Part shown: one piece after another, positions 42,560 to 57,413 of the stretch
How the letters are laid out: every line of letters begins with the position of its first letter
Numbering within the stretch: position 1 is the stretch's first letter
Origin: Chloroflexota bacterium
GTDB taxonomy: Bacteria; Chloroflexota; Limnocylindria; Limnocylindrales; CSP1-4
NCBI GenBank assembly: GCA_016191345.1
Contig: JACPOU010000051.1
Span: 1-64,000, forward strand
Direction of reading: 5' to 3'
Length of the DNA: 64,000 bases
Notes under the pieces: generated by a model
What the model saw: only the letters and a program-made list of their open reading frames with translations
Told to the model about the DNA's origin: nothing
Database searches by the model: none
Translations under genes and position numbers: made by a program

Positions 42560-42625
42560 GGTTCGCCCGGGCCACCGTGGCCCCGTCCGAGGACGTGTTG
42601 TGCTAATGTGACGTGGTTGGCAAAT

Positions 42626-42637
42626 AATCTATAGATT
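42626..42637. promoter_or_regulatory. Perfect AT-rich palindrome at the head of the heme operon
   Basis: AATCTATAGATT is a perfect 12-bp palindrome in otherwise GC-rich DNA, with a further half-site-like TAGATT at 42642-42647 touching the TTG start of the regulator. A candidate -35 TTGGCA (42617-42622) lies just before it, so a protein bound here would block the promoter. It is the best candidate operator for the first-gene regulator; the pairing is inference. Confidence 0.65.
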
Positions 42638-42647
42638 TAGGTAGATT

Positions 42648-43343
42648 TTGAAGCCTGCCGCGTCCCCCGCGATCGATTGGCTGAGTCTTTCCGAGGCCAG
42701 CCGGGTCCTCGGTGTCTCTCCCGCCACGGTTCGCCGCTGGGGCGATGCCGGTCGACTTCGAGTCTTCCTCACGCCCGGCGGTCATCGTCGCTTCTCGCGG
42801 GCCGGCCTCGAGCGCCTGTTGCCGTCGGCTCGCCTCGGCCGGCCATCCCTCAGCAGCGCCGGGCTCACTCCTGCCCGGCTGTCGAGGTCCTATCGGCGGG
42901 TCAGCCGCGGCGTATCCGCCGAGCTCCCGTGGGTTCTCGCCCTGTCGGACGATCAACGGGAACTCTTTCGCGTTGAAGGTCACCTCCTGGCCGAACGGCT
43001 CCTGCAGCACCTCGAGGCCAGGGATCCGGAGATCGCGTCGGATCTGCTTCGAGACGCGGCCTCCAATGCCGCGAGGTACGGCCGGCTTGCGGTGTCGATC
43101 GGCCTGTCCCTGAGCCAGACCGTCGAAGGATTCCTCCGCTTCCGGGCGCCGTTCCATCGGGAACTCGCACTGGCGGCGCAGCGCCGAGGGTTCGACGCTC
43201 ACGAAACGACATCGCTGCTCGCCTCGGCCGAGCGGGCGATGGACCAGCTCCTCGTCGCCACGATGACCGGACACAGCGTCGAGACGGTGACGAACGGCCG
43301 TCGTGCCCGCCGGGTCGCGGGGGCACCCGGATCCCGACGGTGA
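42648..43343 (+). CDS. MerR/excisionase-type HTH regulator heading the heme operon
   Basis: 231 residues with a TTG start at 42648 (TAGGTAG upstream as possible ribosome site; no ATG or GTG fits). HTH at 12-58: DWLSLSEASRVLGVSPATVRRWGDAGRLRVFLTPGGHRRFSRAGLERLL. The C-terminal 130 residues are all helical (FRVEGHLLAERLLQHLEARDPEIASDLLRDAASNAARYGRLA ... SLSQTVEGFLRFRAPFHRELA), resembling an RsbRD-N or globin-like sensory bundle, with His residues available for a cofactor. Its stop overlaps the hemA GTG by 4 nt, so it is the operon's own first gene. Sensing heme or a precursor is inference. Confidence 0.82.
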   Translation: MKPAASPAIDWLSLSEASRVLGVSPATVRRWGDAGRLRVFLTPGGHRRFSRAGLERLLPSARLGRPSLSSAGLTPARLSRSYRRVSRGVSAELPWVLALSDDQRELFRVEGHLLAERLLQHLEARDPEIASDLLRDAASNAARYGRLAVSIGLSLSQTVEGFLRFRAPFHRELALAAQRRGFDAHETTSLLASAERAMDQLLVATMTGHSVETVTNGRRARRVAGAPGSRR

Positions 43344-44491
43344 GCGCGCCATCGGGTGAGATCATCGTCGTCGCGGCCCATGCGCGGCGCGTCCCAGCCC
43401 CGGCGCGTGCCGCCCTGGCCGAGGCGTTCCGGGCCGTGCGGGGCGACGGCCTCCTTCTCGAAACCTGCCACCGGGTGGAGCTCTACCTTCCCTGGAGCCG
43501 GAGCGCGGAGGCCATCCCGGCCAACCTGCCGCCCGGCGTGGAGGTGTTGCGAGGTCCGGCCGCTGAACGGCATGCGTTGGAGGTCGCGGTCGGCCTCGAT
43601 TCCGTCGTCCTCGGTGAGGACCAGATCCTCCACCAGCTCCGCACGGCACTCGCGAGCGCCCGGGCAGGCAGCCCCGTCGCCTCCGAGATCGATCGCCTCA
43701 TGAGCCTGGCGCTGCGCGCCGGAAGGACCGCGCGCTCATGGCGCACCGGACCGGGGCGGACGCTGGCCGACGAAGCCCTCGATGCCTTCACGCGCCGGGG
43801 CATCCGGCTCGACGGCATGGACGTGCTGGTCGTCGGGACGGGCGAGATGGGCGAGCTGGCGGCGCTCCGTGCTCGTGCCGTCGGCGCACGGCCCGTCATC
43901 GCCAGTCGCTCGGCGGCCCACGCGGCCGCGAGCGCCGCCGCCCTGGGCGCGACAACAGTTGCCTTCGATCCGGGCGAGGCGGTCACGCTGTTCGGCGCCA
44001 TCGTCGTCGCCCTGGCCGGCCCGTGGCGACTGAGTCCCCCGACCATCGACAGGATCGCGAACGGGCCGGCGACGATCGTGGACCTTTCGATGCCGTCAGC
44101 CGTCCCGGACACATTGGTCCAAAGCCTCGGCGATCGCTACGTGTCCGTGGATGCGCTTGCCAGCGAGGCGGGCAACCCGGGCTCCTCGCGGGCCGGCGGG
44201 CGGGCCCGGGACCTGGTGGAGCGAACCCTTGTGGAGTTCGAGCGCTGGGCCGAGGGGTGGCAGCACCGAGCTGTCGCGCAGGCACTCGTCGAGCGAGCCG
44301 AGGCGGAACGGAGCGCGCAGCTGGCACGGCTCTGGCTGGTCGCCCCCGAGATCGAGCCCGCGGCGCGCCTGGCAGTCGAACGCATGAGTCGGCAGTTGAC
44401 CGAGCGGCTCTTTCGGGAAGCGCTGGAGCGGCTCCGCCATGACCCGGAGGGCCGGCTCACATCGGCCGCGCGGGAGTTGTTCTCGCTATGA
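43340..44491 (+). CDS. hemA: Glutamyl-tRNA reductase
   Basis: 383 residues, GTG start overlapping the regulator's stop. It reduces glutamyl-tRNA(Glu) with NADPH to glutamate-1-semialdehyde, the first committed step of C5 tetrapyrrole synthesis. Catalytic C43 sits in LLETCHRVELYLP; the family usually has TCNR, so H44 replaces Asn. VGLDSVVLGEDQILHQLRTAL and the Rossmann segment MDVLVVGTGEMGELAAL are clear, and a C-terminal dimerisation helix (VERMSRQLTERLFREALERLR) is present. About 30-60 residues shorter than many HemA proteins. Confidence 0.95.
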   Translation: MSAPSGEIIVVAAHARRVPAPARAALAEAFRAVRGDGLLLETCHRVELYLPWSRSAEAIPANLPPGVEVLRGPAAERHALEVAVGLDSVVLGEDQILHQLRTALASARAGSPVASEIDRLMSLALRAGRTARSWRTGPGRTLADEALDAFTRRGIRLDGMDVLVVGTGEMGELAALRARAVGARPVIASRSAAHAAASAAALGATTVAFDPGEAVTLFGAIVVALAGPWRLSPPTIDRIANGPATIVDLSMPSAVPDTLVQSLGDRYVSVDALASEAGNPGSSRAGGRARDLVERTLVEFERWAEGWQHRAVAQALVERAEAERSAQLARLWLVAPEIEPAARLAVERMSRQLTERLFREALERLRHDPEGRLTSAARELFSL

Positions 44492-46197
44492 GTGGCGATG
44501 ATGTCCGGGTCGGGACGCGCGGGAGTGCGCTGGCCATGGTCCAGGCCAACCTCGTGGCCGCGGCGCTCCTGCGCGTGGGGGCCCGGGCGAGCATCGTCGT
44601 CATCGAGACGGAGGGGGATCGCCGCCCGTCGGACCTGGCCTGGGGCGACGGCGTCTTCGTCGCCGCGATCGAGCGCGAGCTGCTCGCGGGCCGGATCGAC
44701 GTCGGAGTGCACAGCGCGAAGGACCTGCCCACCGTGCTCGACCGCCGCCTCTCCATTGCGGCCTTCCTTCCGCGCGCCGATCCGAGGGACGCGCTCGTCG
44801 TCCGCGACGGAATGAACGGCCGTCTCGACGAGCTTCCGCCAGGGGCAAGCGTTGGAACCGACAGCCCGCGACGCACCGGCTTCCTGCTCGCGCATCGCCC
44901 GGACCTTGATGTCCGACCGATCCACGGCAACGTCGATACCCGACTGCGACGCATGGATGCGGGCGAAGTCGACGCGCTGGTCCTGGCCGCGGCCGGCCTG
45001 GACCGCCTTGGGCTCGCCAACCGCATTGGCGAGCGCCTCGATCCCGTGCTGGTTCCGCCTGCGCCGGGCCAGGGCGCGATCGCCGTGCAGGCACGCTCCG
45101 ACGACCCGCTCGTCATGCTGCTCTCGAAGATCGACGACGCCGACACGCGACGCGCCGTCGAAGCTGAGCGGGACCTGCTGGCCGCGTGTGGCGGGGGCTG
45201 TCGATCGCCCATCGGCGCCCTCGCCCTGGCCGCCGGCGACCAGGTCGCCATCCAGGCCGGCCGAGTCGCGATCGACGGAACCGGCGCCCGCTCAGGGCGG
45301 CGCTCGGGACCGGCGGATGCGGTGCGGCAGATGGTCGCGGATCTCGCGGCGGTCGTATCGGCACCCGGCCCGTGGCGGCCCGAGGCGGCCGGCGCCGGAC
45401 GGCCGAGACGCCCTCGCGTGATCGTCACGCGCCCCGAGGGCCAGGCCGGGGCGCTCATGGCTGCGTTGCGTGATGTCGCGCTGGACCCGATCCCGACCCC
45501 GACGATCAAGGTTCACCTCGGTGCCCCTGACGGACCGCTCGACCGAGCGCTGCCGTGGATCGGAAGCTTCGCCTGGGTCGTCATCACGAGCGCGAACGGC
45601 GCCCGAGCCCTGCTCGCGGCCGCGGAGCGGATCTTCACGCCGTTCGAGGCAACGCGCCTCGCGGCGGTCGGTCCTCAGACGAGGATGGCCCTGGAAGCCG
45701 AGGGCGTCGACGTTGCGTTCCAGCCCACCGTCGCCACGGCCTCGGACCTCGGACGACAGTTGCCGATCACGGCGGGCGACGAAGTGCTGGTCGTGCGTGG
45801 TTCAACCGGTGGCGCGGAGCTGTCCGAGATGCTCGTTGCGCGCGGCGCGGTCGTCCACGAGGTTGTCGCCTACACGACCGAGGAGGCGCCACCTGAGTTC
45901 GGACGGCGTCTCCGGCAGGCCTTCGGCGAGGGTCCGGTGGCCGCCGCCGTCTTCACGAGCGGGTCCACCGTGCGAGGTCTCGTACGGCTCGCCGCGACGG
46001 AATCGATCCGCGTGGGCGGCCTTCCCGCGATCTGCATCGGACCCGAGACCGCCGCGGCCGCCGCCGCCGCGGGGTTCGAGGTGGTTGGCGTGGCCGAGTC
46101 GACGGAACCAGCGGTTCTGGCCGAGACCGCGGCCCGGGCGATTCGGGTCCGATTGCCCGCCCCGCCGCTCGCGCCGGCCGGAGGTTCGCCACGATGA
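44488..46197 (+). CDS. hemCD: Porphobilinogen deaminase / uroporphyrinogen-III synthase fusion
   Basis: 569 residues. The HemC part (1-295) has VRVGTRGSALAMVQANLV, HSAKDLPT, DSPRRTGFLLAHRPDLDVRPIHGNVDTRL and the dipyrromethane cofactor Cys C238 in CGGGCRSPIGA. A linker near 295-310 joins the HemD part (311-560: PRVIVTRPEGQAGALMAAL, WVVITSANGARAL, VVAYTTEE, AAVFTSGSTVRGL). The protein would make hydroxymethylbilane and cyclise it to uroporphyrinogen III in one chain. ATGA overlap with hemA. Confidence 0.95.
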   Translation: MSGDDVRVGTRGSALAMVQANLVAAALLRVGARASIVVIETEGDRRPSDLAWGDGVFVAAIERELLAGRIDVGVHSAKDLPTVLDRRLSIAAFLPRADPRDALVVRDGMNGRLDELPPGASVGTDSPRRTGFLLAHRPDLDVRPIHGNVDTRLRRMDAGEVDALVLAAAGLDRLGLANRIGERLDPVLVPPAPGQGAIAVQARSDDPLVMLLSKIDDADTRRAVEAERDLLAACGGGCRSPIGALALAAGDQVAIQAGRVAIDGTGARSGRRSGPADAVRQMVADLAAVVSAPGPWRPEAAGAGRPRRPRVIVTRPEGQAGALMAALRDVALDPIPTPTIKVHLGAPDGPLDRALPWIGSFAWVVITSANGARALLAAAERIFTPFEATRLAAVGPQTRMALEAEGVDVAFQPTVATASDLGRQLPITAGDEVLVVRGSTGGAELSEMLVARGAVVHEVVAYTTEEAPPEFGRRLRQAFGEGPVAAAVFTSGSTVRGLVRLAATESIRVGGLPAICIGPETAAAAAAAGFEVVGVAESTEPAVLAETAARAIRVRLPAPPLAPAGGSPR

Positions 46198-47231
46198 GCG
46201 TTGACCTGACGGGCATGCCCGCGAACGCGCCCTCCGGAGGCGACCTCCCCCTGCCCTCGATCCGGCTCCGCCGGTTACGGGGCAGTGAGCGAATCCGGCG
46301 ACTCGTCCGGGAGACGCGGATCGACCCCGCGATGCTGGTGGCGCCGCTGTTCGTCTGCGCGGGGAGTGGCGTCCGCGAGCCGATCGGGTCGATGCCCGGC
46401 GTGGCGCGTCTATCGCCGGATCTCGCCGCGATCGAGGCGGAGACGCTCGCGGCACTCGGGGTCGGGGGCCTCCTCCTGTTCGGCCTGCCTCGGGGCAAGG
46501 ACCCGATGGGATCCGAGGCGTCGGCCGACGACGGTGTCGTCCAGGACGCGTTCTCGCGGATCCGCTCGCTCCAGCTTCCGATCGTGACGATCGCCGACAC
46601 GTGCCTGTGCGAGTACACCGACCATGGCCACTGCGGGCCGCTCACGCGGTCGGGTGAGGTGGACAATGACGCGGCCCTCGAGCGTCTCGCCGCCACCGCC
46701 GTGAGCCAGGCCCGGGCCGGCGCCGACATCGTCGCCCCGAGCGCGATGATGGATGGCCAGGTGGCGGCGATCCGGGCGGCGCTCGACGGCGCGGGCTTCC
46801 AGGGCACGCCGATCATGGCCTACGCCGCAAAGCACGCCTCCGCGTTCTACGGGCCCTTTCGGGAAGCCGCCGGGAGCGCGCCGGCCCTCGGCGACCGGCG
46901 GGCCTACCAGATGGACCCGACGAATGGGCGCGAGGCGATGCGAGAGATGGCGCTCGACGTCGCGGAGGGCGCGGACCTGCTGCTCGTCAAGCCGGGCCTG
47001 CCGGGTCTCGACCTGATCGCCGCGGCGCGGCAGCGGTTCGACCTCCCGATTGCCGCATACCAGGTGAGCGGCGAGCACGCGATGATCGCGGCCGCCGCCG
47101 AACGCGGCTGGATCGATCGTCGCAACGCGACGCTCGAGGCCGTCGGGGCCATGGTCCGGGCCGGCGCCGGGATCGTCGTCACGTACGCTGCCGGCGATAT
47201 CGCCCGGTGGCTGGCGGACGAGCGATCGTGA
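46194..47231 (+). CDS. hemB: Porphobilinogen synthase (zinc type)
   Basis: 345 residues. Condenses two 5-aminolevulinate molecules. Zinc ligands C137, C139 and C147 in DTCLCEYTDHGHCG show the zinc-dependent form. Schiff-base lysines are K213 in AAKHASAFYGPF and K266 in LLVKPGLPGLD. IVTIADTC, APSAMMDGQVAAIR and AYQVSGEHAMI are intact. ATGA overlap with hemCD. Confidence 0.97.
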   Translation: MSVDLTGMPANAPSGGDLPLPSIRLRRLRGSERIRRLVRETRIDPAMLVAPLFVCAGSGVREPIGSMPGVARLSPDLAAIEAETLAALGVGGLLLFGLPRGKDPMGSEASADDGVVQDAFSRIRSLQLPIVTIADTCLCEYTDHGHCGPLTRSGEVDNDAALERLAATAVSQARAGADIVAPSAMMDGQVAAIRAALDGAGFQGTPIMAYAAKHASAFYGPFREAAGSAPALGDRRAYQMDPTNGREAMREMALDVAEGADLLLVKPGLPGLDLIAAARQRFDLPIAAYQVSGEHAMIAAAAERGWIDRRNATLEAVGAMVRAGAGIVVTYAAGDIARWLADERS

Positions 47232-47917
47232 CGGACCCCGCCAGCACGTACGTCCAGGCCCTGGCACTCAGCCTCGATCCGGCCTGGCGTCGACGCTCCG
47301 ATGACCGCCGCCGTCGCGAGGCCGCCTCGTTCTCGGATCTCCTGTCTCGCCCGGACGTGCCGCCGATGCGAACCATGGCCTACAGCTCCATCGGCATCGA
47401 GCCGGGCGTGGACCTGCTCCTGTGGCGCCGCGCCGACTCTGTCGATGCGCTCGAGGAGGCCGCCGCCGCCGTGCTCCGGACGGGCCTCGGGCGATGGCTC
47501 GAGGTCCGCCACTCCCTGCTCGGCCGGATCGGCCCGTCACAGTACGTCCGCAAGCCGACCGAACAGGAGCAGTCGCCGTTCGACGGCGCGCGATCGCGCT
47601 ACCTGATCGTCTATCCGTTCACGAAGAGCACGGACTGGTACCTGCTGCCCGCTGAGGCCCGGCAGGGGATCATGAACGAGCACATGCGGGTGGGCCATCA
47701 GTACCCGATGGTCCGCCAGGCGTTGGCGTACTCCTTCGGGCTGGACGGGCAGGACTTCGTCGTGGCCTACGAAACCGACGATCTGCCCGCGTTCGGAGAT
47801 CTCGTCCGGGCGCTGCGTGCCACCGAGAGCCGCCGCTCCACCGTCAACGACAATCCCATCCTTCTCGGAGTCCATCGCCCCGCCGGGGAGATCCTCCATC
47901 TCCTGGGTGCGCCGTGA
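47228..47917 (+). CDS. hemQ: Coproheme decarboxylase HemQ (chlorite dismutase-like)
   Basis: 229 residues, GTG start overlapping hemB by 4 nt. The Cld-fold protein carries the proximal heme His H152 in IMNEHMRVGHQYP, with YPFTKSTDWYLLP before it. In the coproporphyrin-dependent pathway HemQ converts coproheme to heme b using peroxide. No distal Arg of true chlorite dismutases is evident, and the operon setting settles HemQ. This implies that HemH here inserts iron into coproporphyrin III rather than protoporphyrin IX. Confidence 0.92.
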   Translation: MTDPASTYVQALALSLDPAWRRRSDDRRRREAASFSDLLSRPDVPPMRTMAYSSIGIEPGVDLLLWRRADSVDALEEAAAAVLRTGLGRWLEVRHSLLGRIGPSQYVRKPTEQEQSPFDGARSRYLIVYPFTKSTDWYLLPAEARQGIMNEHMRVGHQYPMVRQALAYSFGLDGQDFVVAYETDDLPAFGDLVRALRATESRRSTVNDNPILLGVHRPAGEILHLLGAP

Positions 47918-49206
47918 CGACCGCGCCAACGACAGCCGGCGTTTCGTCGGATCTCGTGCGTCGGGCCGAGAGCCTCTTTCCGGGCGGCGTGAACAGCCCC
48001 GTTCGCGCGTTCCGATCCGTGGCCCGGCCGCCCCTCCTCCTCCAGCGCGGCAAGGGGCCCCATGTCTGGGATGTGGACGGCCGCCGATACATCGACTACA
48101 TCGGGTCGTGGGGCCCCGCCATCCTCGGTCATGCCGACGCCGGAGTGATGGCGGCCATGTCGTCGGCCCTGAGCGACGGCCTGGCGCTCGGAGCGACCCA
48201 TCCGCTCGAGATCGAGCTCGGCGAGGCCATCCGCTTGGCGATGCCCTCGATGGAACGGCTGCGCTTCACGTCGTCCGGCACGGAAGCGGTCATGTCCGCC
48301 GTGCGCCTCGCCCGTGCCGCGACGGGCCGCGACCTCATCGTCAAGTTCGGGGGCGGGTACCACGGTCACGCGGACCATCTCCTCGTGAACGCCGGTTCGG
48401 GGATCGCGACGCACGGGATCCCGGGCAGCGCCGGCGTGCCCGACGGCGTGGCTGCGCTGACGGTCGTCCTGCCCTACAACGATCGGGGAGCCGTCGAGGC
48501 AGCATTCCGCATCCACCGCGGGCAGGTCGCGGCCGTGATCGTGGAGCCCGTGGCCGCCAACGTCGGCGTCATCCCGCCGGTGCCCGGATTCCTGGAGACG
48601 GTGCGGGCCGTGACCGCCGCGGACGGAGCGCTGCTCATCTTCGATGAGGTCATCACCGGCTTTCGCCTCGGTCGTGGCGGGGCCCAGGGTCTGATGGGCA
48701 TCACGCCCGACCTCACGACGCTCGGCAAGATCATCGGCGGCGGCATGCCCATCGGAGCGTACGGCGGCCGGGCGGACCTGATGGCGATGATCGCGCCCTC
48801 GGGTCCCGTCTACCAGGCCGGCACCCTGTCAGGGCATCCGCTCGCGATGGCGGCCGGAATCGCCACGCTCGCCGCGTTGACGCCGGAGCGCTACGAGGCC
48901 CTGGAGGCGACGGCCGCCGGGCTCGAAGCGGGGCTCAGGAGCGTGGCCGCCGCACCCGGCGGTCGCATCGCCCTGGCGCGTGTCGGATCCCTCCTGACGG
49001 TCTTCTTCGCGGACGAGCCGCCGGTCAATGCCGGTCAGGCTCTGGCCGCCGACCGCTCGGCGTTCACGCGGTTCTTCGGACAGATGCTGGACAGGGGAGT
49101 CCTCCTCCCGCCGTCGCCATTCGAAGCGTGGTTCGTCTCCATGGCCCACGGCCGTGACGAGATCGCCGCGACCATCACCGCCGTCACGGAGGCATTGACT
49201 GAATGA
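47914..49206 (+). CDS. hemL: Glutamate-1-semialdehyde 2,1-aminomutase
   Basis: 430 residues, GTG start overlapping hemQ by 4 nt. Converts glutamate-1-semialdehyde to 5-aminolevulinate. FPGGVNSPVRAFRSV, FTSSGTEAVMSAVRLARAATGRDLIVKF, YHGHADHLLV, LLIFDEVITGFRL and the PLP Lys K272 in TLGKIIGGGMPIGAYGG are diagnostic; SGTxAxMSA distinguishes it from other class III aminotransferases. Confidence 0.97.
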   Translation: MTTAPTTAGVSSDLVRRAESLFPGGVNSPVRAFRSVARPPLLLQRGKGPHVWDVDGRRYIDYIGSWGPAILGHADAGVMAAMSSALSDGLALGATHPLEIELGEAIRLAMPSMERLRFTSSGTEAVMSAVRLARAATGRDLIVKFGGGYHGHADHLLVNAGSGIATHGIPGSAGVPDGVAALTVVLPYNDRGAVEAAFRIHRGQVAAVIVEPVAANVGVIPPVPGFLETVRAVTAADGALLIFDEVITGFRLGRGGAQGLMGITPDLTTLGKIIGGGMPIGAYGGRADLMAMIAPSGPVYQAGTLSGHPLAMAAGIATLAALTPERYEALEATAAGLEAGLRSVAAAPGGRIALARVGSLLTVFFADEPPVNAGQALAADRSAFTRFFGQMLDRGVLLPPSPFEAWFVSMAHGRDEIAATITAVTEALTE

Positions 49207-50246
49207 GTGACCGCTTTCTCCGAGCCTGCCGCCGCGAGGCAGTCGACGCGACACCTGTCTGGTTCATGCGCCAGGCCGGTCGGACCTTTCCCGCCTATCG
49301 CGCCCTGCGCGAGCGCCATGGGATCCTCGAGCTCGCGAAGAATCCGGAGCTATGTGCCGAAGTGACCCTCATGCCGGTCCGCGAGCTCGGCGTGGACGCT
49401 GCGGTCATGTACGCCGACATCATGCTGCCGCTCGAGCCCATGGGCGTCGACCTGCACATCGAGCCCGAGGTCGGCCCGATCATCGAGCGACCGCTCCGGA
49501 CCATGGCCGACATCGAGGCCCTCCGAAAGCTCGATCCAGCTGTCATCGAATCCACCCTCGAGGCGATCCGGCTCGTCCGAAGGGAGCTGGAGGGCAGGGC
49601 CGCCGTCATCGGCTTCAGCGGCGCACCGTTCACCCTCGCCTGCTACCTCATCGAGGGCCGGCCATCGCGTGACTATGCGATGGCCAAGGCGTTCATGTAT
49701 GGACAACCGGCCGCATGGCACGCCCTGATGGATCGCCTGTCGGAAATGGCGATCGCGTACCTGCGGGCCCAGGTCGAGGCCGGTGCCCAGGTGGTCCAGC
49801 TGTTCGACAGCTGGGTCGGCGGGCTTGCCCCGGCCGACTACGAGGCCTTTGTCCAGCCGTACGTCCGGCGCATCGACGAGGCGCTGGCGGGCGTCCCGAC
49901 GATCCTCTTCGGAACGGGTACCGCCTCCCTGCTCGAGCTGACCGCGGCGTGTGGCAGTGACCTCGTCGGGGTCGATCACCGGATCTCGCTCGCCGATGCC
50001 TGGGCGAGGATCGGGTTCGACCGCGGCATCCAGGGGAACCTGGACGGCGCGCGCGTGCTCGCCGGCTGGGACGCCACCGAAGCGGGCGCCCGGCGCGTCC
50101 TCGACGAGGCAGCGGGCCGGCCCGGCCACGTGTTCAATCTCGGTCACGGCGTCCTCCCGGGCAGCGATCCGGCGATCCTTCGTCGGCTTGTCGACTTCGT
50201 GCACGAGACGACCGCTCGCGTGGACCTCGCGGCGGCCACGGCATGA
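49203..50246 (+). CDS. hemE: Uroporphyrinogen decarboxylase
   Basis: 347 residues, ATGA overlap with hemL. Decarboxylates uroporphyrinogen III to coproporphyrinogen III. VWFMRQAGRTFPAYRALRER holds the two substrate Arg residues; MYADIMLPLEPMG, GFSGAPFTLACYLIEG, VQLFDSWVGGLAPADYEAFV and GVDHRISLADAW are family signatures. Confidence 0.97.
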   Translation: MSDRFLRACRREAVDATPVWFMRQAGRTFPAYRALRERHGILELAKNPELCAEVTLMPVRELGVDAAVMYADIMLPLEPMGVDLHIEPEVGPIIERPLRTMADIEALRKLDPAVIESTLEAIRLVRRELEGRAAVIGFSGAPFTLACYLIEGRPSRDYAMAKAFMYGQPAAWHALMDRLSEMAIAYLRAQVEAGAQVVQLFDSWVGGLAPADYEAFVQPYVRRIDEALAGVPTILFGTGTASLLELTAACGSDLVGVDHRISLADAWARIGFDRGIQGNLDGARVLAGWDATEAGARRVLDEAAGRPGHVFNLGHGVLPGSDPAILRRLVDFVHETTARVDLAAATA

Positions 50247-51175
50247 GCGACCTGCCGGCTGATGCCGGCGTCCTCCTGATGACGTACGGCTCGCCGGACA
50301 CGATGGAGGAAGCGGATGTCGCCGCGTACCTCGCGAAGGTCCGGGGAGGCCGAACGCCGAACGCCGAGCTCGTCACGGAGTTCGCCCGGCGCTACCAGGT
50401 CATCGGCGGGTCGCCGCTGGTCGAGATCACGGCTCGGCAGGCGGCCGCCCTCGCGGCGCACCTCCATCGGCCCGTCCGGGCGGCGATGCGGTTCTCCGAG
50501 CCGACCATCGAGCGAGCGCTCCGCGTCCTCGCGGCAGAGGGTGCCCGGCGGGTCGTCGGGATCGTGCTGTCACCGCAGTACTCCCCGATGCTGATGGGAG
50601 GCTATGGACGAGACATCGAGGCGGCGCGGGACCAGATCGGCCCCGGGGCCCCCGCCGTCCGGATGGCGGGGGAGTGGTGGGCGGAGCCGGAATTCATCCG
50701 GGCCCTCGCGATGCGCGTCCGGGCCGCGCTGGCGCGACTCGGCGAGACGGAGCGCCGCAGTGTGGCCGTGCTCATGACTGCCCACAGCCTGCCGCGTCAT
50801 GTCGCCGAGCAGGAGCCGGGGTACCTGGAGCAACTGCGCGGCACTGCCCTCGCCGTCGCGGCTGCCGCCGGGCTCCCGGACGATGCCTGGCAGTTCTGCT
50901 GGCAGAGCGCAGGGCACGAGCCGGGCGAATGGATGCAGCCCGATCTCAAGGATCTCGTGGGTGACCTGGCAGCGACCGGCCGGAGCGCGATCCTGGTCGT
51001 CCCGGTCCAGTTCCTGGCCGACCACCTCGAGGTGCTGTACGACATCGATGTCGGCGCCAGGGAGCAGGCTGCCGTTGCCGGGATCGGGTTTGCGCGCATC
51101 GGCTCCCTCAACGACGATCCGGCGCTCGTCGCGGCACTCGGAAACGTCGCTCGCCGGACCCTGATGCCTGCCTGA
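50243..51175 (+). CDS. hemH: Ferrochelatase (coproporphyrin type by context)
   Basis: 310 residues, ATGA overlap with hemE, last gene of the operon. GVLLMTYGSP opens the protein; metal-site H181 in MTAHSLP and E263 in PVQFLADHLEVLYDID are present; SPQYSPMLMGGYGRDIEAA fits. The short monofunctional form without a C-terminal 2Fe-2S tail and the presence of hemQ indicate iron insertion into coproporphyrin III (CpfC role). A weak hairpin (GCGCCGCT...AGCGGCGC, 51212-51238) follows the stop. Confidence 0.95.
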   Translation: MSDLPADAGVLLMTYGSPDTMEEADVAAYLAKVRGGRTPNAELVTEFARRYQVIGGSPLVEITARQAAALAAHLHRPVRAAMRFSEPTIERALRVLAAEGARRVVGIVLSPQYSPMLMGGYGRDIEAARDQIGPGAPAVRMAGEWWAEPEFIRALAMRVRAALARLGETERRSVAVLMTAHSLPRHVAEQEPGYLEQLRGTALAVAAAAGLPDDAWQFCWQSAGHEPGEWMQPDLKDLVGDLAATGRSAILVVPVQFLADHLEVLYDIDVGAREQAAVAGIGFARIGSLNDDPALVAALGNVARRTLMPA

Positions 51176-51315
51176 CAACCCTCTCGCAACCCGCCGTGGC
51201 CCCCAATCGCAGCGCCGCTGCCGCCCGCTGAGCGGCGCGAGCGGCCGCCTTCGCCCCGACACTCGCAGGCAGGGTCCGCCACCGTTGCTCGGGCCCGCCT
51301 GGAGGACGACCCGCC

Positions 51316-52614
51316 ATGCGACGACTCGCGAGCGCATCCCTGGCAGCGGGCCTGCTGGCCGTGGCCGTGCCCGCGGCGGCCTTTGCGGCCGAGCCCGGCC
51401 AGATCGACACCGGCGACACGGCGTGGCTCCTGATCGCCACCGCCCTGGTGATGGTGATGCTGCCGGGACTCGCGCTCTTCTACGGCGGCCTCGTTCGCCG
51501 CAAGAACGTCCTCTCGACGATCATGCACAGCTTCTTCGGCCTGGCGATCGTCAGCGTCGTCTGGGTCGTCGTGGGCTTCTCGATCGCCTTCGCGCCCGAC
51601 GCCACCGGCACCGGCCTCTTCGGCGGCCTCGACTACCTGTTCTTCAACAACGTCGGCCTCGCGCCGCTCGGGACGAGCACGATCCCGTTCATCCTCTTCG
51701 CGGCCTTCCAGCTGATGTTCGCGGCCATCACCCCGGCCCTCATCACCGGCGCGTTCGCAGAACGGAAGCGCTTCGCGAGCTTCGTGATCTTCACCGTTCT
51801 CTGGTCGGTCGTCGTCTACTCACCGATCGCCCACTGGGTCTGGGCCTCCGACGGCTGGCTCTACAACCTCGGCGCCCTCGACTTCGCGGGCGGCACCGTG
51901 GTCCATGCCTCGTCCGGCGTGTCCGCCCTCGTCGTCGCCCTCCTCATCGGCCGCCGAGCGGTCAGCGCGGAGGGGATGGAGCCCCACGACATCCCGATGA
52001 CCGTCCTCGGCGCCGGCCTGCTGTGGTTCGGCTGGTTCGGCTTCAACGCCGGCTCCGCGCTCGCCGCAAACGGCCTGGCGGCCAATGCCCTCCTGGTGAC
52101 GAACACGGCCGCGGCGGCGGCGACGATCACCTGGGTCCTCGCGAGCTACGTCCACAGGCGCAAGGTCAGCGTCCTCGGAGCGGCCTGTGGTGCCGTGGCC
52201 GGCCTCGTTGCGATCACGCCCGCCTCGGGCTTCGTGACGGCCGGCGGCGCGCTCGCGATCGGCCTCATCGTCGGCGGCCTGTGCTACAGCGCGACGCTCC
52301 TCCGCGAGCGCCTCAAGATCGACGACGCCCTCGACGTCTTCGCGGTCCACGGCGTGGGCGGCACGTTCGGCGCGATCGCCACGGGGGTCTTCGCAACGGT
52401 CGCGATCAATGCCTACCCGGGCCTGATCGACGGCAACCCCGGCCAGGTCGTCACCCAGCTCATCGCGGTCGGGGCGACGATCACCTACGCGGTGGTCGCC
52501 ACGTTCGTGATCGTGAAGCTGGTCGACGTCATCCTCGGGATCCGGATCTCGGCCCGCGAGGAGGAGCTCGGCCTCGACCTCTCGACCCACGGCGAGGTCG
52601 CCTACCAGGCCTGA
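51316..52614 (+). CDS. amt: Ammonium transporter
   Basis: 432 residues. Signal-like N-terminus (ASLAAGLLAVAVPAAAFAAEP), then 11 membrane spans of the Amt/Rh fold: DTAWLLIATALVMVMLPGLALFYGGLVRRKN, the AHWVW segment after span four, DFAGGTVVHASSGVSALVVAL (pore His) and VFAVHGVGGTFGAIATGVF (second pore His). No P-II (glnB/glnK) gene is adjacent. It is followed by a terminator hairpin and then glutamate synthase, so uptake and assimilation of ammonium are side by side. Confidence 0.97.
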   Translation: MRRLASASLAAGLLAVAVPAAAFAAEPGQIDTGDTAWLLIATALVMVMLPGLALFYGGLVRRKNVLSTIMHSFFGLAIVSVVWVVVGFSIAFAPDATGTGLFGGLDYLFFNNVGLAPLGTSTIPFILFAAFQLMFAAITPALITGAFAERKRFASFVIFTVLWSVVVYSPIAHWVWASDGWLYNLGALDFAGGTVVHASSGVSALVVALLIGRRAVSAEGMEPHDIPMTVLGAGLLWFGWFGFNAGSALAANGLAANALLVTNTAAAAATITWVLASYVHRRKVSVLGAACGAVAGLVAITPASGFVTAGGALAIGLIVGGLCYSATLLRERLKIDDALDVFAVHGVGGTFGAIATGVFATVAINAYPGLIDGNPGQVVTQLIAVGATITYAVVATFVIVKLVDVILGIRISAREEELGLDLSTHGEVAYQA

Positions 52615-52634
52615 CCGGCCGCCCCATCCGAAGC

Positions 52635-52661
52635 GCACCCCGGGACCTCCACCCGGGGTGC
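52635..52661 (+). terminator. Hairpin terminator after amt
   Basis: GCACCCCGGG (52635-52644) and CCCGGGGTGC (52652-52661) form a perfect 10-bp stem with a 7-nt loop, 20 bp after the amt stop. No U tract. It may reduce readthrough into the glutamate synthase gene, 42 bp downstream. Confidence 0.7.
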
Positions 52662-52703
52662 CGCCTCTCCGCCTCCGCCACCTCCCCTGTCGAGGCCGCC
52701 ACG

Positions 52704-55700
52704 ATGCGACGCTCGCCCCAACCGCCACCGCTCTACGACCCGTCGACGGAGCACGACGCCTGCGGCGTCGGGTTCGTCGCCGACGCGGGCGGTCGATCCG
52801 CCGACCGGGTGCTGTCCCTGGCGCTCGCGGGCCTCGGCTCGCTGGGCCACCGCGGCGCGTTCGGGGCGGATGGCCGTTCGAGTGACGGCGCCGGCGTGGC
52901 GCTGCCGCTCGAGGCGGATCTGCTGGGGCTCATCTGTGGCAGCGTCGATGGTCAGGGGGGTGCCGCGAATGCCGCCGGCCGGCCGGCGGTCTTCCAGCTG
53001 TTCATGCCCCGCGGCCGAGCCCGTCGGGCCCGAGCCCGGTCGATCGTCGTCGCCGCGCTCGCCGAGGTCGCTCTCGAAGTCGGCGCCTGGCGCACGGTGC
53101 CCAGCGATTCCGAGGCCCTGGGACCTGCGGCGTTCGAGAGCCGTCCGGCGTTCGAGCAGGCGATCGTGCCGCGGCCGGGCCGTGCGGGCGGCAGCGGCGA
53201 GCGGCCGCTCGGCGATGCCGCCTTCGAGCGCCGGCTCCTCCTCGCCCGTCGTCGGATTGCGTCGGCCGCCATCGAGGGTGGCCTCGGCGAGCTGAGCGTC
53301 GCCTCGGGCTCCAGCCGGGTCATCGTCTACAAGGGCCTCGTCGCCGGGGACCGGCTTCCGCAGCTCTTCCCGGACCTCGCCCGGCCGCTCGCGACGACCC
53401 ATGCGACCTTCCACCAGCGCTACGCGACGAACACGCATCCGACCTGGAACCTGGCCCAGCCGTTCTCCATCCTGGCCCACAACGGCGAGATCAACACCGT
53501 CCGCGGCAACCGCGAGGAGGTCCGCGGCCGGGCGGCCGATCCCGATCCGGGCGGGCTGCTGGAAGCGATCCGGGAGCGCGGCCCGATCCTCAGCCCCGGG
53601 GTCTCGGATTCCGCCTCGCTCGACGAGGCCGTGGAGCTGCTCGTCGCGTCCGGCTGGACGGCGGCGACCGCACTGGCGGCCCTGATCCCGGATGCGCCGG
53701 CGCTCCGCACCGCCGGCGCCGCCACGGCCTCGCTCGGGATGGCCCGGTTGGCGGGTCTCCTCGCGCCCTGGGACGGGCCGGCGGCCCTGGTGTTCAGCGA
53801 CGGCCGCTCCGTCGGCGCGCTGCTGGACCGCAACGGGCTCCGACCGCTCGCCGTGGCGACGACGTGCGACGGACTGGTCGTCGCCGCCTCGGAGGCCGGG
53901 GCGGTGCCGCTCGACCCGGCCGAGATCATCGCCCTCGACCGCCTCGGGCCGGGCGAGATGCTCGTCGTGGAACCCCGGAGCCGGCGGGTTGTCGGCCGGC
54001 CGGGGCTCCGGCCACGCCGCGCCCGGGCGGCCGCGCTCCGGCGCCCCGCCGCGTTCTTCGCCGACACGCTTCCCTCGCAGCGGGCCGACCTCCGGCAGCC
54101 GGATCCGAGCGCTGGAGCGCGGTATCTCGCGGGCCTCGACGCGGAGCGGCTTCGCCTCGACATCCGGACCATGGCCCTCGACGGCCGGGAGCCCCTCTGG
54201 AGCATGGGCGACGACACGCCCACCCCCGGCTTCGGGCGGACGCCGCGGCGGGCCGTCGACCACCTGAAGCAGGCCTTCGCCCAGGTCACGAACCCGCCGA
54301 TCGACCCCGAGCGCGAGCGCCTGGTCGTGGACCTTCGCGTGACCGTGGGCCGCCGCCGGCCGCTCCTGGCCGGACCTCATGCGGCGCTGCCCCGAACGGT
54401 GCGCATCGAGCGGCCGGTCATCGCCGACCTCGAAGGGCTCGTGTCGGCGCTCCGCGCGCGCCGGGGCCGGGTCGCCGAGCTCGATGCGACCTGGCCAGTC
54501 GAGGCGGGGCCCGACGCCCTCGCGGCGGGCGTGCGTCGGCTGGCGACCGAGGCGGTTGCCGCCGCCGCGTCGGGGGCCGTGGCGGTCCTCGTCACGGACC
54601 GGCGCCTGGGCCTCGACCGGCTGCCCGTCCCGTCCGTCCTCGCCGTCGGTGCCGTCCATGCGGCCCTCACCGGAGCCGGCCTCCGCGGTCGGACCGACGT
54701 CATCGCCGACGCGGCCGACGTCATGGACGTCCATGCCCTCGCGATGTGCGTCGCGGCCGGGGCGCGTGCCGTCCGCCCGTGGCTCGCCATCCGGCTTGCC
54801 GCCGAGCTCGCCGGTTCGCGCGGTGCCGAGGCGCTCGACGTGACCGCGCTGACCGGGCGGCTCCTCGACGCGCTCGAGACCGGGCTGCGCAAGACGCTCG
54901 CCCGGATGGGGATCAGCTCCGCGGCCTCGTACGTCGGCGGGGCGTTCTTCGAGACGATCGACCTCGCGAGCGAGGTCACCGAGGCCTGCGTCCCGGCAGC
55001 GCTCGGCTGGGAGGGCACGATCGGCTTCCGGGACCTCGCCGAGCGACAGCTCGGGCTGCTCCCGCTGGCGCGCAGCCTGGACGCGACGGTGGTGCCCGAG
55101 GGCCGCGAGGTCCGCTATCCGGATCCGGGACGGGCCCGGTTCCGGTCCGACGGGGAGCTCCACCTCTACGCGCCGAAGGTCGTCGCCGCGATCCAGGCGC
55201 TCGCCGGCACCGGCGACCCCGCGCTCCAGGCGCTCGCCGGCACCGGCGACCCCGCGCGTGTTCCCGATGTCGCGGCGAAGCCGGAGTCGGCAACGCCGGA
55301 GGCGGCGAAGCCGGCCGTGGGTGCAGGATCCGGCCCGTCCGCCCTCGACCGCGAGGCGCCCGCCCTCGTCCGCGACCGGTTCGCCTTCCGTGCCGCCGCG
55401 CGCCGGCAGCCGGTCCCGCTCGGGGAGGTGGAGCCCGCGCCCGCGATCATTCGCCGCCTCGTCGTGAGCGCGATGAGCGTCGGCGCCCTCTCGCCCGAGG
55501 CCCACCAGGCCCTGACGATCGGCATCCAGCGCGCGGGCGGCGCCGCGAACACGGGGGAGGGCGGGGAGGACCCCGCCTGGTACGAGCCCGGCGAGGACGG
55601 CCGGCGCCGCGACGCCTCGATCAAGCAGGTCGCGAGCGGCCGCTTCGGGGTCACCGCGACCTACCTCGCGCGCGCGGAGCAGCTCGAGATCAAGATCGCC

Positions 55701-57413
55701 CAGGGCTCCAAGCCCGGCGAGGGCGGCCAGCTCCCGGCCCGGAAGGCGACGGCCTACATCGCGGCGCTCCGGCGCGGCCAGCCGGGCCGGGCCTACATCA
55801 GCCCGCCGCCGCACCACGACATCTACTCGATCGAGGACCTCGCCCAGCTGATCGCCGACCTTCGGGCGATCAACCCGGCGGCCCGGATCGGCGTCAAGCT
55901 GGTCGCCTCGCGCGGCGTCGGGACGATCGCCGCCGGGGTCACGAAGGCCGGTGCCGACTACATCCACCTCGCCGGTGGCGCCGGCGGGACGGGTGCCTCG
56001 CCCCTCAGCTCGATCAAGCACGTCGGCGTGCCATGGGAGCTCGGCCTGTCCGAGGTCCACCAGGTCCTCCTCTGGAACGGGCTCCGGGACCGCGTCGCGC
56101 TGCGGACGGACGGTGGCCTCCAGCGCGGCCGCGACCTGCTCATCGCCGCGCTCCTCGGGGCCGAGGAGTTCGCGCTCGGGACCGCGGCCCTCGTCGCGAT
56201 CGGCTGCGACATGGCCCGCCAGTGCCACCTCGACACCTGCCCGACGGGCATCGCCACCCAGCGCGACGACCTGCGGGCCAAGTTCACTGGCAGGCCCGAG
56301 CAGGTGGAACGGTATGCGACCGCTCTCGCCGAGGACCTGCGCGTCGAGCTCGCCGGCATCGGCGCCCGAAGCGTGGGGGAGATCATCGGCCAGGCGGCCG
56401 AGGTCCTGCGGCCAGTGGTCGCGAGCGATCGCGGCCTCCGGCGCGTGCTGGCTGCGCCGCGCTGGACCGCCTCCCTCGAGCGCCGCGCCGCGCCCGCAAG
56501 CGCCGCCCGGGTCGTGGCACGGGCGCCGGCGTCGCCGCTCGAGACGCGCCTTGCGGCCGCGCTCGTCGGCCACGGCGCCGTCCGCCTCGACGGCCTCCGG
56601 ATCACGACCGCGGAGCGGTCATTCGGCGCGGCGCTGACCGGGGCGGTGGAGCGAGGCTCGATCCGGATCCCGATCGACCTGGGCATCCGCGGCGCCGCGG
56701 GCCAGTCCTTCGGCGCATTCCTCGGGACCGGGATCACGATCCGGCTGGCCGGCACGGCCAACGACTACGTCGGCAAGGGCCTGTCGGGTGGGACGGTCAT
56801 CGTCGCCCCGGACCCGGATCTTCCCGCCGCTCACGGCACCCGGCCGCCGGCCGTCGCCGGCAACACCTGCCTCTACGGCGCGACCGGCGGCCGGCTCCAC
56901 GTCGTCGGGCGGGCCGGGATGCGGTTCGCGGTCCGGAACGCCGGTGCCGATGCCGTCGTCGAGGGGATCGGGCCGCACGGCGCCGAGTACATGACGGGCG
57001 GGACGCTGCTCGTGCTCGGGCCGATCGGGGCGAACTTCGGAGCGGGGATGACCGGCGGCCGCGCGTACCTCCTCGATCCCGAGGGGGCCGCGCGGGCCCG
57101 GATCGACGCGTCCAGCGTCACCGCCCGCCCGGTCCGAGCCGCAGCGGACCCCGAGGCCGAGCTGGAGATCGGGCGGCTCCTCCGGCTTCATCGGGATGCT
57201 GGGTCGCCGTTGGCGGCGCAGTTGCTCGCGGACGAGCCGGCGGCGATCGCCTCCTTCTGGGCCGTGGAGCCGCTCGCCGCCCCGGACGCCACGGCCGAGA
57301 CGGCGTCCGTGCCCGTGGTCCGGGCCGCGCCACCGCGGCTGCCGGCCCGCACGATCGGCCTCGAGACGCTGACGACGGCTTCCGCCTCGGAGGCCAGCGC
57401 CGTCGCGTCATGA
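52704..57413 (+). CDS. gltB: Glutamate synthase, large subunit
   Basis: 1569 residues. A 19-residue propeptide ends at C20 (TEHDACGVGF), the N-terminal nucleophile of the glutaminase domain, with LGHRGAFGADG and THPTWNLAQPFSILAHNGEINTVRGN following. The FMN synthase domain (about 900-1290) has SVGALSPEAHQAL, GEGGEDPAWY, KPGEGGQLP, SPPPHHDIYSIEDLAQLI and the 3Fe-4S cysteines C1168, C1174 and C1179 (CDMARQCHLDTCPTG). A GxGxG beta-helix closes the protein (GAGMTGGRAYLLDPEG). Makes glutamate from glutamine and 2-oxoglutarate. No gltD follows. Codons near 830-850 carry a duplicated 11-residue insert. Confidence 0.96.
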   Translation: MRRSPQPPPLYDPSTEHDACGVGFVADAGGRSADRVLSLALAGLGSLGHRGAFGADGRSSDGAGVALPLEADLLGLICGSVDGQGGAANAAGRPAVFQLFMPRGRARRARARSIVVAALAEVALEVGAWRTVPSDSEALGPAAFESRPAFEQAIVPRPGRAGGSGERPLGDAAFERRLLLARRRIASAAIEGGLGELSVASGSSRVIVYKGLVAGDRLPQLFPDLARPLATTHATFHQRYATNTHPTWNLAQPFSILAHNGEINTVRGNREEVRGRAADPDPGGLLEAIRERGPILSPGVSDSASLDEAVELLVASGWTAATALAALIPDAPALRTAGAATASLGMARLAGLLAPWDGPAALVFSDGRSVGALLDRNGLRPLAVATTCDGLVVAASEAGAVPLDPAEIIALDRLGPGEMLVVEPRSRRVVGRPGLRPRRARAAALRRPAAFFADTLPSQRADLRQPDPSAGARYLAGLDAERLRLDIRTMALDGREPLWSMGDDTPTPGFGRTPRRAVDHLKQAFAQVTNPPIDPERERLVVDLRVTVGRRRPLLAGPHAALPRTVRIERPVIADLEGLVSALRARRGRVAELDATWPVEAGPDALAAGVRRLATEAVAAAASGAVAVLVTDRRLGLDRLPVPSVLAVGAVHAALTGAGLRGRTDVIADAADVMDVHALAMCVAAGARAVRPWLAIRLAAELAGSRGAEALDVTALTGRLLDALETGLRKTLARMGISSAASYVGGAFFETIDLASEVTEACVPAALGWEGTIGFRDLAERQLGLLPLARSLDATVVPEGREVRYPDPGRARFRSDGELHLYAPKVVAAIQALAGTGDPALQALAGTGDPARVPDVAAKPESATPEAAKPAVGAGSGPSALDREAPALVRDRFAFRAAARRQPVPLGEVEPAPAIIRRLVVSAMSVGALSPEAHQALTIGIQRAGGAANTGEGGEDPAWYEPGEDGRRRDASIKQVASGRFGVTATYLARAEQLEIKIAQGSKPGEGGQLPARKATAYIAALRRGQPGRAYISPPPHHDIYSIEDLAQLIADLRAINPAARIGVKLVASRGVGTIAAGVTKAGADYIHLAGGAGGTGASPLSSIKHVGVPWELGLSEVHQVLLWNGLRDRVALRTDGGLQRGRDLLIAALLGAEEFALGTAALVAIGCDMARQCHLDTCPTGIATQRDDLRAKFTGRPEQVERYATALAEDLRVELAGIGARSVGEIIGQAAEVLRPVVASDRGLRRVLAAPRWTASLERRAAPASAARVVARAPASPLETRLAAALVGHGAVRLDGLRITTAERSFGAALTGAVERGSIRIPIDLGIRGAAGQSFGAFLGTGITIRLAGTANDYVGKGLSGGTVIVAPDPDLPAAHGTRPPAVAGNTCLYGATGGRLHVVGRAGMRFAVRNAGADAVVEGIGPHGAEYMTGGTLLVLGPIGANFGAGMTGGRAYLLDPEGAARARIDASSVTARPVRAAADPEAELEIGRLLRLHRDAGSPLAAQLLADEPAAIASFWAVEPLAAPDATAETASVPVVRAAPPRLPARTIGLETLTTASASEASAVAS
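55194..55256 (+). repeat. 33-bp in-frame tandem duplication within gltB
   Basis: Units 55194-55226 and 55227-55256 are identical over at least 30 bp and encode QALAGTGDPA twice. They sit in the low-complexity linker between the central and FMN domains, just before a run of Pro/Ala/Lys. A recent replication-slippage event that keeps the frame. Confidence 0.9.

What the first reader, a model, noticed from the sequence alone, without database searches (positions are those of the whole stretch)
42626..51175. Eight-gene heme operon whose own first gene is an HTH regulator with an AT-rich palindrome at its start
The sequence shows seven consecutive junctions that are all exact 4-nt ATGA/GTGA overlaps, from an HTH gene through hemA, hemCD, hemB, hemQ, hemL, hemE and hemH. 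The HTH protein has a C-terminal helical bundle with no metal-sensing Cys set. AATCTATAGATT, rare in this GC-rich DNA, plus a third TAGATT half-site, lies directly before its TTG start. Inference: an autoregulated, tetrapyrrole- or heme-sensing repressor or activator made in fixed ratio with the pathway enzymes. I know of no described heme regulator with this fusion.
Basis: partly seen in the sequence, partly recalled or inferred. Interest (0 to 1): 0.82.

Follow-up and report, generated by a model that had tools for sequence, protein, structure and literature searches.

The report
Globin-type self-regulator of heme operon
The first gene of this eight-gene heme-making operon encodes a DNA-binding protein with a predicted globin-like sensor half that likely shuts off its own operon by binding a twin TAGATTT site; versions of that site recur in front of its relatives across Chloroflexota, so it would be an undescribed way for bacteria to match heme production to need.

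Summary
In detail: a BldC/MerR-type regulator gene and seven heme genes joined by seven 4-nt overlaps. The palindrome is an accident of this genome: 1 of 80 upstream regions has it. Conserved instead is a directional direct repeat, two AG[AG]TT[TC] half-sites 9-10 bp apart, TAGATTTAGGTAGATTT here (42632-42648). AGRTTTNNNNAGRTTT with up to one mismatch occurs twice in the 2.77 Mb home genome: before this gene and before its one full-length paralogue. In 1.0 Mb around relatives, 39 of 40 perfect sites lie just upstream of a family gene. It follows a -10 box at a fixed 29 nt in eight near relatives, a repressor's position. In the group holding the window 41 of 50 members directly precede a heme gene, 3 are near contig ends, 6 do not; three of the six follow a cytochrome-c gene. 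AlphaFold models of two family members suggest a C-terminal sensor-globin fold, as in RsbR, globin-coupled sensors and bilin proteins. Best reading: a dedicated autorepressor of heme synthesis, likely tetrapyrrole-responsive. Binding, repression and ligand are untested.

The parts
42601..42609 (+). predicted extended -10 promoter element TGCTAATGT (-10 hexamer 42604-42609)
   Evidence: TANNNT lies exactly 29 nt before the first AGATTT in 8 of 8 near relatives scored (window, L068-L074), 7 of 8 with the TG. The sigma-70 consensus scan found no -35/-10 pair here.
42632..42638 (+). operator half-site 1, TAGATTT
   Evidence: Direct repeat with 10-bp period; 12 of 12 match to AG[AG]TT[TC] x2. TAGATTTNNNTAGATTT with up to 3 mismatches has one match in the 2.77 Mb genome, here (the reversed-pattern control had 4).
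42642..42648 (+). operator half-site 2, TAGATTT; its last T is the first base of the TTG start codon
   Evidence: AGRTTTNNNNAGRTTT with up to 1 mismatch: 2 matches in the genome, here and before the paralogue, reversed control 0
   Evidence: exact palindrome 1 of 80 upstream regions, loose inverted form 1 of 80, both the window alone
42648..43343 (+). regulator gene, 231 aa: BldC/MerR-type winged HTH (residues 11-58) plus predicted sensor-globin domain (about 64-214)
   Evidence: HTH_17 1.4e-10; BldC model 1.9e-12 but below its cut-off; AlphaFold model pLDDT 86.9; VIA-align
43340..44491 (+). hemA, glutamyl-tRNA reductase
   Evidence: PF05201 3.9e-20; below the NCBIfam hemA cut-offs; GTGA overlap
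44488..46197 (+). hemCD fusion: porphobilinogen deaminase and uroporphyrinogen-III synthase
   Evidence: PF01379 4.4e-66 and PF02602 7.9e-43
46194..47231 (+). hemB, ALA dehydratase
   Evidence: PF00490 6.5e-129
47228..47917 (+). hemQ, chlorite-dismutase-type, likely coproheme decarboxylase (longest ORF from 47207)
   Evidence: PF06778 7.6e-46; below the NCBIfam HemQ cut-offs
47914..49206 (+). hemL, glutamate-1-semialdehyde aminomutase
   Evidence: TIGR00713 over cut-off
49203..50246 (+). hemE, uroporphyrinogen decarboxylase
   Evidence: TIGR01464 over cut-off
50243..51175 (+). hemH, ferrochelatase
   Evidence: TIGR00109 over cut-off

Best explanation
The 231-residue protein is likely a dedicated one-component autorepressor of the heme operon: its BldC-type winged HTH is predicted to bind two head-to-tail TAGATTT half-sites at 42632-42648, which follow a predicted -10 promoter box, and would thereby block transcription of its own gene and of the seven heme genes behind it. 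Shown directly: the operon, the repeat, its conservation and near-exclusive place before genes of this family, and the genomic linkage to heme genes. Inferred from the BldC precedent: cooperative head-to-tail binding, one protomer per half-site. Inferred from position: repression by occluding or road-blocking RNA polymerase, since with a start about 7 nt after the -10 box the repeat would lie at about +17 to +33. Predicted: the C-terminal ~150 residues fold as a sensor globin. Inferred and least certain (about 0.4): the globin binds a tetrapyrrole of the pathway as a co-repressor, giving feedback on the pathway. Apart from the paralogue's own site, no other strong copy is seen in the home genome, so the regulon is predicted to be this operon alone.
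For: Operator: in 78 scored upstream regions, two half-sites with 12 of 12 matches occur in 35 and in 0 of 1560 single-base shuffles; in the heme group 32 of 49 score at least 11 against 0.5% of shuffles; all 64 sites scoring at least 10 point the same way as the gene, ties having been given to that strand. Specificity: own genome; 20 relatives, 27 matches of which 12 lie within about 100 bp upstream of a family gene, 9 in the reversed control; in 999,318 bases of 80 loci 39 of 40 perfect sites, and 74 of 89 sites scoring at least 11, lie upstream of a family regulator. Position: 29-nt distance from TANNNT in 8 of 8 near relatives, 28-33 nt in 16 of 29 heme rows scored; in the paralogue clade a TTGAC/TANNNT promoter in 12 of 15 rows, 0.02 expected, upstream of the repeat. 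Function: 41 of 50 group members directly before hemA, hemCD, hemQ or hemB; of 13 further regulators in loci not seen before, 9 precede a hem gene, one of them 33% identical with a perfect operator. BldC binds direct repeats head to tail with AATTXXXX(C) units of 9 bp (PMC5859096, passages). Fold: both models match pXO2-61/pXO1-118, a stressosome RsbR-type domain, RsbR-N, DosC, AfGcHK and phycocyanins.
Confidence: 0.68

Rival explanations
1. The regulator controls the heme operon but senses something other than a tetrapyrrole made by the pathway: oxygen or NO through a bound heme, some hydrophobic ligand, or light through a bilin.
For: The same fold class holds heme gas sensors (DosC, AfGcHK), bilin binders (phycocyanin, photocobilin 8j2w) and RsbR-type domains. 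Paralogues with the same domain head unrelated genes. A heme-holding RsbR globin is reported as an oxygen sensor (PMC9237108, passages). Some members stand beside cytochrome-c genes.
Against: The commonest neighbours are the heme pathway genes themselves. No invariant proximal-type His; no Cys in the window protein for covalent bilin. I did not search systematically for respiratory or light-response neighbours.
Confidence: 0.35
2. The repeat is an RNA element in the untranslated leader, bound as RNA by the regulator or another factor, so control is post-transcriptional.
For: The sites scoring at least 10 have the orientation of the gene and where a promoter is recognisable they lie between it and the start codon; in the window the repeat overlaps the TTG start codon.
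Against: The protein has a DNA-binding HTH closest to BldC, whose solved complexes are with DNA direct repeats. The distance from repeat to coding sequence varies widely, while the distance from the -10 box is fixed among near relatives.
Confidence: 0.1
3. The protein is an activator of the heme operon, or acts as both repressor and activator, like classical MerR proteins.
For: MerR-type HTH.
Against: The site lies downstream of the recognisable -10 boxes, not between -35 and -10, and is a direct repeat, not a palindrome.
Confidence: 0.12
4. One reading: a symmetric dimer on the AATCTATAGATT palindrome.
For: The palindrome is exact and rare in this window.
Against: It is found in 1 of 80 upstream regions, and a loose inverted form in the same one only, while the direct repeat is widespread.
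Confidence: 0.03

Closest known systems
BldC (Streptomyces developmental regulator, MerR-like wHTH)
   Same: Closest solved DNA-binding domain by sequence profile (6.4e-10) and first in Foldseek (6ama, 6amk); direct-repeat sites with AT-rich half-sites about one turn apart (PMC5859096, passages).
   Different: BldC is a 68-residue wHTH without effector domain and a pleiotropic developmental regulator (same passages, abstract start); this protein has a C-terminal domain and a predicted regulon of one operon. Score 46.8 against a cut-off of 77 for NCBI's BldC model.
Rex of Streptomyces (rex-hemACD operon)
   Same: A regulator gene co-transcribed with and repressing heme genes (PMC5355995, passages), so regulator-first heme operons are known.
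   Different: Rex is an NADH/NAD-responsive repressor with a palindromic operator and at least 11 targets (same passages); no Rex domain is found here.
RsbR-type non-heme sensor globins (RsbRD_N, PF14361)
   Same: Predicted fold of residues about 64-214; PF14361 is annotated on 18 of 240 listed relatives (1 of 120, 17 of 120).
   Different: No PF14361 match in the window protein and in only 4 of 115 scanned relatives, best E 0.0015; here fused to a DNA-binding domain.
MabR/PucR-type regulators with a non-heme globin domain
   Same: Transcription factor with a globin-fold sensor domain resembling phycobiliproteins and RsbR (PMC11617747, section 2.2 read).
   Different: MabR has an N-terminal globin followed by GGDEF-like and HTH modules (passages); here a BldC-type HTH comes first and there is no GGDEF-like domain.
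Photoglobins / photocobilins
   Same: Globin-fold domain related to RsbR and phycobiliproteins; photocobilins bind biliverdin (PMC10151467 and PMC10979010, passages); 8j2w is among the VIA matches of the paralogue.
   Different: No B12-binding domain and no Cys in the window protein.
TipA/TipAS (MerR protein with a globin-like ligand domain; fold recalled)
   Same: MerR-type HTH plus a C-terminal helical ligand domain (recalled); weak, non-significant profile match E 0.57-0.59.
   Different: No TipAS domain among Pfam matches; direct repeat instead of a palindromic site.

Membership tests
BldC family | HTH_17/MerR-type wHTH closest to BldC | tested here: met
   HTH_17 1.4e-10; BldC 6ama/6amk first in PDB by profile and by Foldseek
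BldC family | score over NCBI's BldC model cut-off | tested here: not met
   46.8 bits against 77
BldC family | direct-repeat operator bound head to tail | tested here: inconclusive
   direct repeat present and conserved; binding not testable here
BldC family | wHTH only, no effector domain | tested here: not met
   about 150 further residues with a confidently predicted domain
RsbR-type sensor globin (PF14361) | globin fold of RsbR type | tested here: met
RsbR-type sensor globin (PF14361) | profile match of the protein itself | tested here: not met
   no PF14361 match at E<=0.1 in the window protein; 4 of 115 relatives at E<=0.01
heme-binding globin-coupled sensor | conserved proximal His | tested here: inconclusive
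   no invariant His in the domain; position 144 is Tyr 34, His 5, Asp 1, Gln 1 of 41; His209 33 of 41; structural register not available
photoglobin/photocobilin | B12-binding partner domain and Cys motif | tested here: not met
   no B12-binding Pfam match in the window protein; no Cys in it; partner proteins elsewhere not searched
classical MerR | palindromic site between -35 and -10 (recalled) | tested here: not met
   palindrome in 1 of 80; repeat downstream of recognisable -10 boxes
TipA | TipAS domain | tested here: not met
   not among matches of the window protein at E<=0.1 nor among the 17 families listed for 115 relatives at E<=0.01
Rex | NAD(H)-binding Rossmann domain (recalled) | tested here: not met
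   no such Pfam match; C-terminal half all-helical in the model

The most novel reading that the evidence does not exclude
A new class of bacterial one-component regulators: a BldC-type winged HTH fused to a sensor globin that binds the very tetrapyrroles the operon makes and, by head-to-tail assembly on a leader-embedded direct repeat, closes a self-contained feedback loop on the heme pathway. The heme form appears to be the old one, with gene copies later retargeted to other operons together with their own variant of the site.
Probability: 0.38. Interest if true: 0.82.

Novelty: new variant of a known kind. Interest (0 to 1): 0.64.

Why it matters
I found no description of how heme synthesis is controlled in the large, mostly uncultured Chloroflexota and Dormibacterota in the papers I could search. 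This gives a named candidate, a precise operator, a predicted regulon of one and a sensor domain of the fold that nature uses to hold heme and bilins. If a tetrapyrrole is the ligand, the globin fold would here measure the supply of its own kind of cofactor. The family also offers compact, apparently self-targeted repressor-operator pairs.

Tried and rejected
Palindrome operator: rejected. Regulon beyond the operon: in the own genome no further match except the paralogue's; in 20 relatives the 15 matches that are not upstream of a family gene are of the order of the reversed control (9), and no hem gene was found in their loci of about 1.5 kb either side. A weaker or different site elsewhere is not excluded. 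Cys- or CP-type heme motif: no Cys in the window protein, 27 of 41 linked members have none, none has CP. Heme-iron ligand by conservation: none invariant. Papers: BldC+globin+helix-turn-helix gave 0 papers; hemA+Chloroflexi regulator terms gave one unrelated paper; the listings showed nothing on this; one search listed one paper, not opened. The photoglobin paper itself is not held. Coproporphyrinogen oxidase by TIGR00562: no match over cut-off in the own genome. Terminator after hemH: none found in 51100-51400. Rows dropped: L117, L133, L144 (under 190 aa) from the tree; L067, L100, L112, L127 from the operator count. The extended -10 count of 21 of 50 is inflated, because the operator half-site can itself match; one search was used instead. 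The tree is rooted at its midpoint for drawing only, so 'group' means one side of a supported branch. The 20 regions hold 21 of the 52 places listed and were picked by hand; 7 of the 20 have the contig length of a locus already, so only 13 are counted as new.
Full report
What is in the sequence. The regulator ORF runs 42648-43343 on the + strand and starts with TTG. Pfam names the seven following ORFs as glutamyl-tRNA reductase, a fused porphobilinogen deaminase/uroporphyrinogen-III synthase, ALA dehydratase, a chlorite-dismutase-type HemQ, an aminotransferase that NCBIfam calls glutamate-1-semialdehyde aminomutase, uroporphyrinogen decarboxylase and ferrochelatase. All seven junctions are 4-nt GTGA or ATGA overlaps, with hemQ starting at 47228. 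The palindrome AATCTATAGATT is present once.

Who carries the regulator. 32 of 61 genomes (own plus 60 relatives) have a match at E<=1e-10, and 42 of 301 genomes drawn across the phylum, own included, at E<=1e-25. A scan of named genomes gave 80 loci, the number kept being capped: mostly Chloroflexota, some Candidatus Dormiibacterota, one Thermomicrobiales and a few labelled Actinomycetota. In a tree of 79 proteins (77 of those 80, the window and the own paralogue; three under 190 aa dropped) one 50-member group (support 99/93) holds the window. Counting a hem gene on the same strand that starts within 400 nt after the stop, 41 of 50 lie directly before one (hemA 32 plus the window, hemCD 4, hemQ 3, hemB 1), 3 stand within 600 nt of a contig end, and 6 are not linked. 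Of those 6, L118, L120 and L115 follow a gene for a NapC/NirT-type cytochrome c, with a cytochrome-assembly gene beside it in L118 and L120 and ResB too in L118 (Pfam); L113 has a near-identical upstream protein to L115. L095 and L099 show neither. L093 combines a cytochrome c gene upstream with hemA downstream. Two long-branch rows outside the group also lie upstream of hemA (L136 135 nt away, L146 998 nt away). A hand-picked further draw of 20 loci holds 21 regulators, 16 of them directly before a hem gene; leaving out 7 loci whose contig length equals one seen before, 9 of 13. One of these, L178, is only 33% identical and has a perfect operator. Heme linkage therefore looks old (inference).

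The operator. Reading the upstream regions showed a repeated TAGATTT-like word in one direction. Scored as two AG[AG]TT[TC] half-sites 9-11 bp apart in 78 regions, 35 match all 12 positions against 0 of 1560 single-base shuffles. By clade, at least 11 of 12: heme 32 of 49, the own paralogue's clade 15 of 15, two further clades 3 of 5 and 4 of 7, outliers 2 of 2. All 64 sites with at least 10 matches have the gene's orientation (ties were given to that strand), spacing 10 or 9 bp. In 999,318 bases of the 80 loci, both strands, 40 perfect sites occur and 39 are just upstream of a family regulator; at 11 of 12 it is 74 of 89. In the own genome, AGRTTTNNNNAGRTTT with up to one mismatch occurs twice: here and upstream of the paralogue at C1:16305. 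In 20 relatives there are 27 matches; by comparing coordinates, 12 are upstream of a family gene; the reversed control gives 9, and 4 of the 20 genomes have no match although they carry a family gene. The palindrome is found in 1 of 80 regions.

Where it sits. In the paralogue clade a TTGAC/TANNNT promoter is found in 12 of 15 rows (0.02 expected from shuffles) and in another clade in 5 of 8 (0.01 expected), upstream of the repeat. In the heme group such a pair is found in only 1 of 50. There, in the window and its seven scored near relatives, a TANNNT box lies exactly 29 nt before the first AGATTT, with an extended -10 TG in 7 of 8; over all 29 heme rows scored it is 28-33 nt in 16, at other distances only in 4, and absent within 45 nt in 9. 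The repeat in the window would then lie at about +17 to +33, inside the leader, assuming a start about 7 nt after the -10 box, and its second copy runs into the TTG start codon. A protein bound there is expected to hinder RNA polymerase, hence a repressor (inference). The consensus promoter scan found nothing in the window itself.

The ligand. Globins of this type share a fold with phycobiliproteins and with photoglobins, of which photocobilins bind biliverdin (PMC10151467, PMC10979010, passages; PMC11617747 section 2.2), and a heme-holding RsbR globin is reported as an oxygen sensor (PMC9237108, passages). In 41 heme-linked members no His or Cys of the domain is invariant: position 144 is Tyr in 34 and His in 5, His209 is His in 33; Tyr82 is Tyr in 40 but also in 15 of 15 of the paralogue clade. 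The window protein has no Cys. I therefore think a pathway tetrapyrrole the likeliest single ligand, at about 0.4, and do not claim iron coordination.

Paralogues. Other clades of the family head other genes: a conserved ~345-residue membrane protein without Pfam match, an M20-type peptidase, or stand alone (by eye; one example of each of the first two scanned), and most carry the same kind of site. The bases between half-sites begin ACC or GCC in 11 of 15 sites of the paralogue clade and in 0 of 29 of the heme group, which may keep the paralogues apart (inference).

What is known. Regulator-first heme operons exist: Rex is co-transcribed with hemACD in Streptomyces and represses that operon (PMC5355995, passages). 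BldC-type DNA binding and globin-type sensing are each known. Their fusion, its dedication to heme genes and the operator were not found in the papers I could search. I rate it a new variant of a known kind.

Noticed in passing
L067, L077, L078, L114: In these loci the regulator directly precedes hemCD, and no hemA or hemL is found in the stretch held. No GlutR_N match was found anywhere in genomes G001 and G031, which hold L067 and L077, nor in G010 (79, 92 and 64% complete); ALA-synthase matches stay below cut-off in all six genomes tested. The source of ALA is unclear.
   Followed up: partly
L082, L084, L088: Two regulator copies stand back to back, one before hemA and one before hemQ, as if the first and last parts of the pathway had separate control.
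   Followed up: no
L036:5953-6978 and the clade of L123, L132, L141: The own paralogue and its relatives overlap or abut a conserved ~345-residue predicted membrane protein (L036's has no Pfam match), with EamA-type and hydrolase-like genes and a galU-like gene further on in several (names by eye).
   Followed up: partly
window 51316-57413: Directly after hemH come an ammonium-transporter-like ORF (51316-52614) and a glutamate-synthase-like ORF (named by eye): nitrogen and glutamate supply next to the glutamate-consuming heme pathway.
   Followed up: no
L068-L074, between the -10 box and the repeat: Near relatives share a further similar stretch, GAGCGAGTCG...CACCTTC in several, between the -10 box and the repeat; the window does not keep it. 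Role unknown.
   Followed up: no
G000 C23:21199-21414: The coproporphyrinogen-oxidase step has no gene in the operon and, by TIGR00562, no match over cut-off in the genome (best partial match E 3.8e-11). Other oxidase families were not searched.
   Followed up: partly
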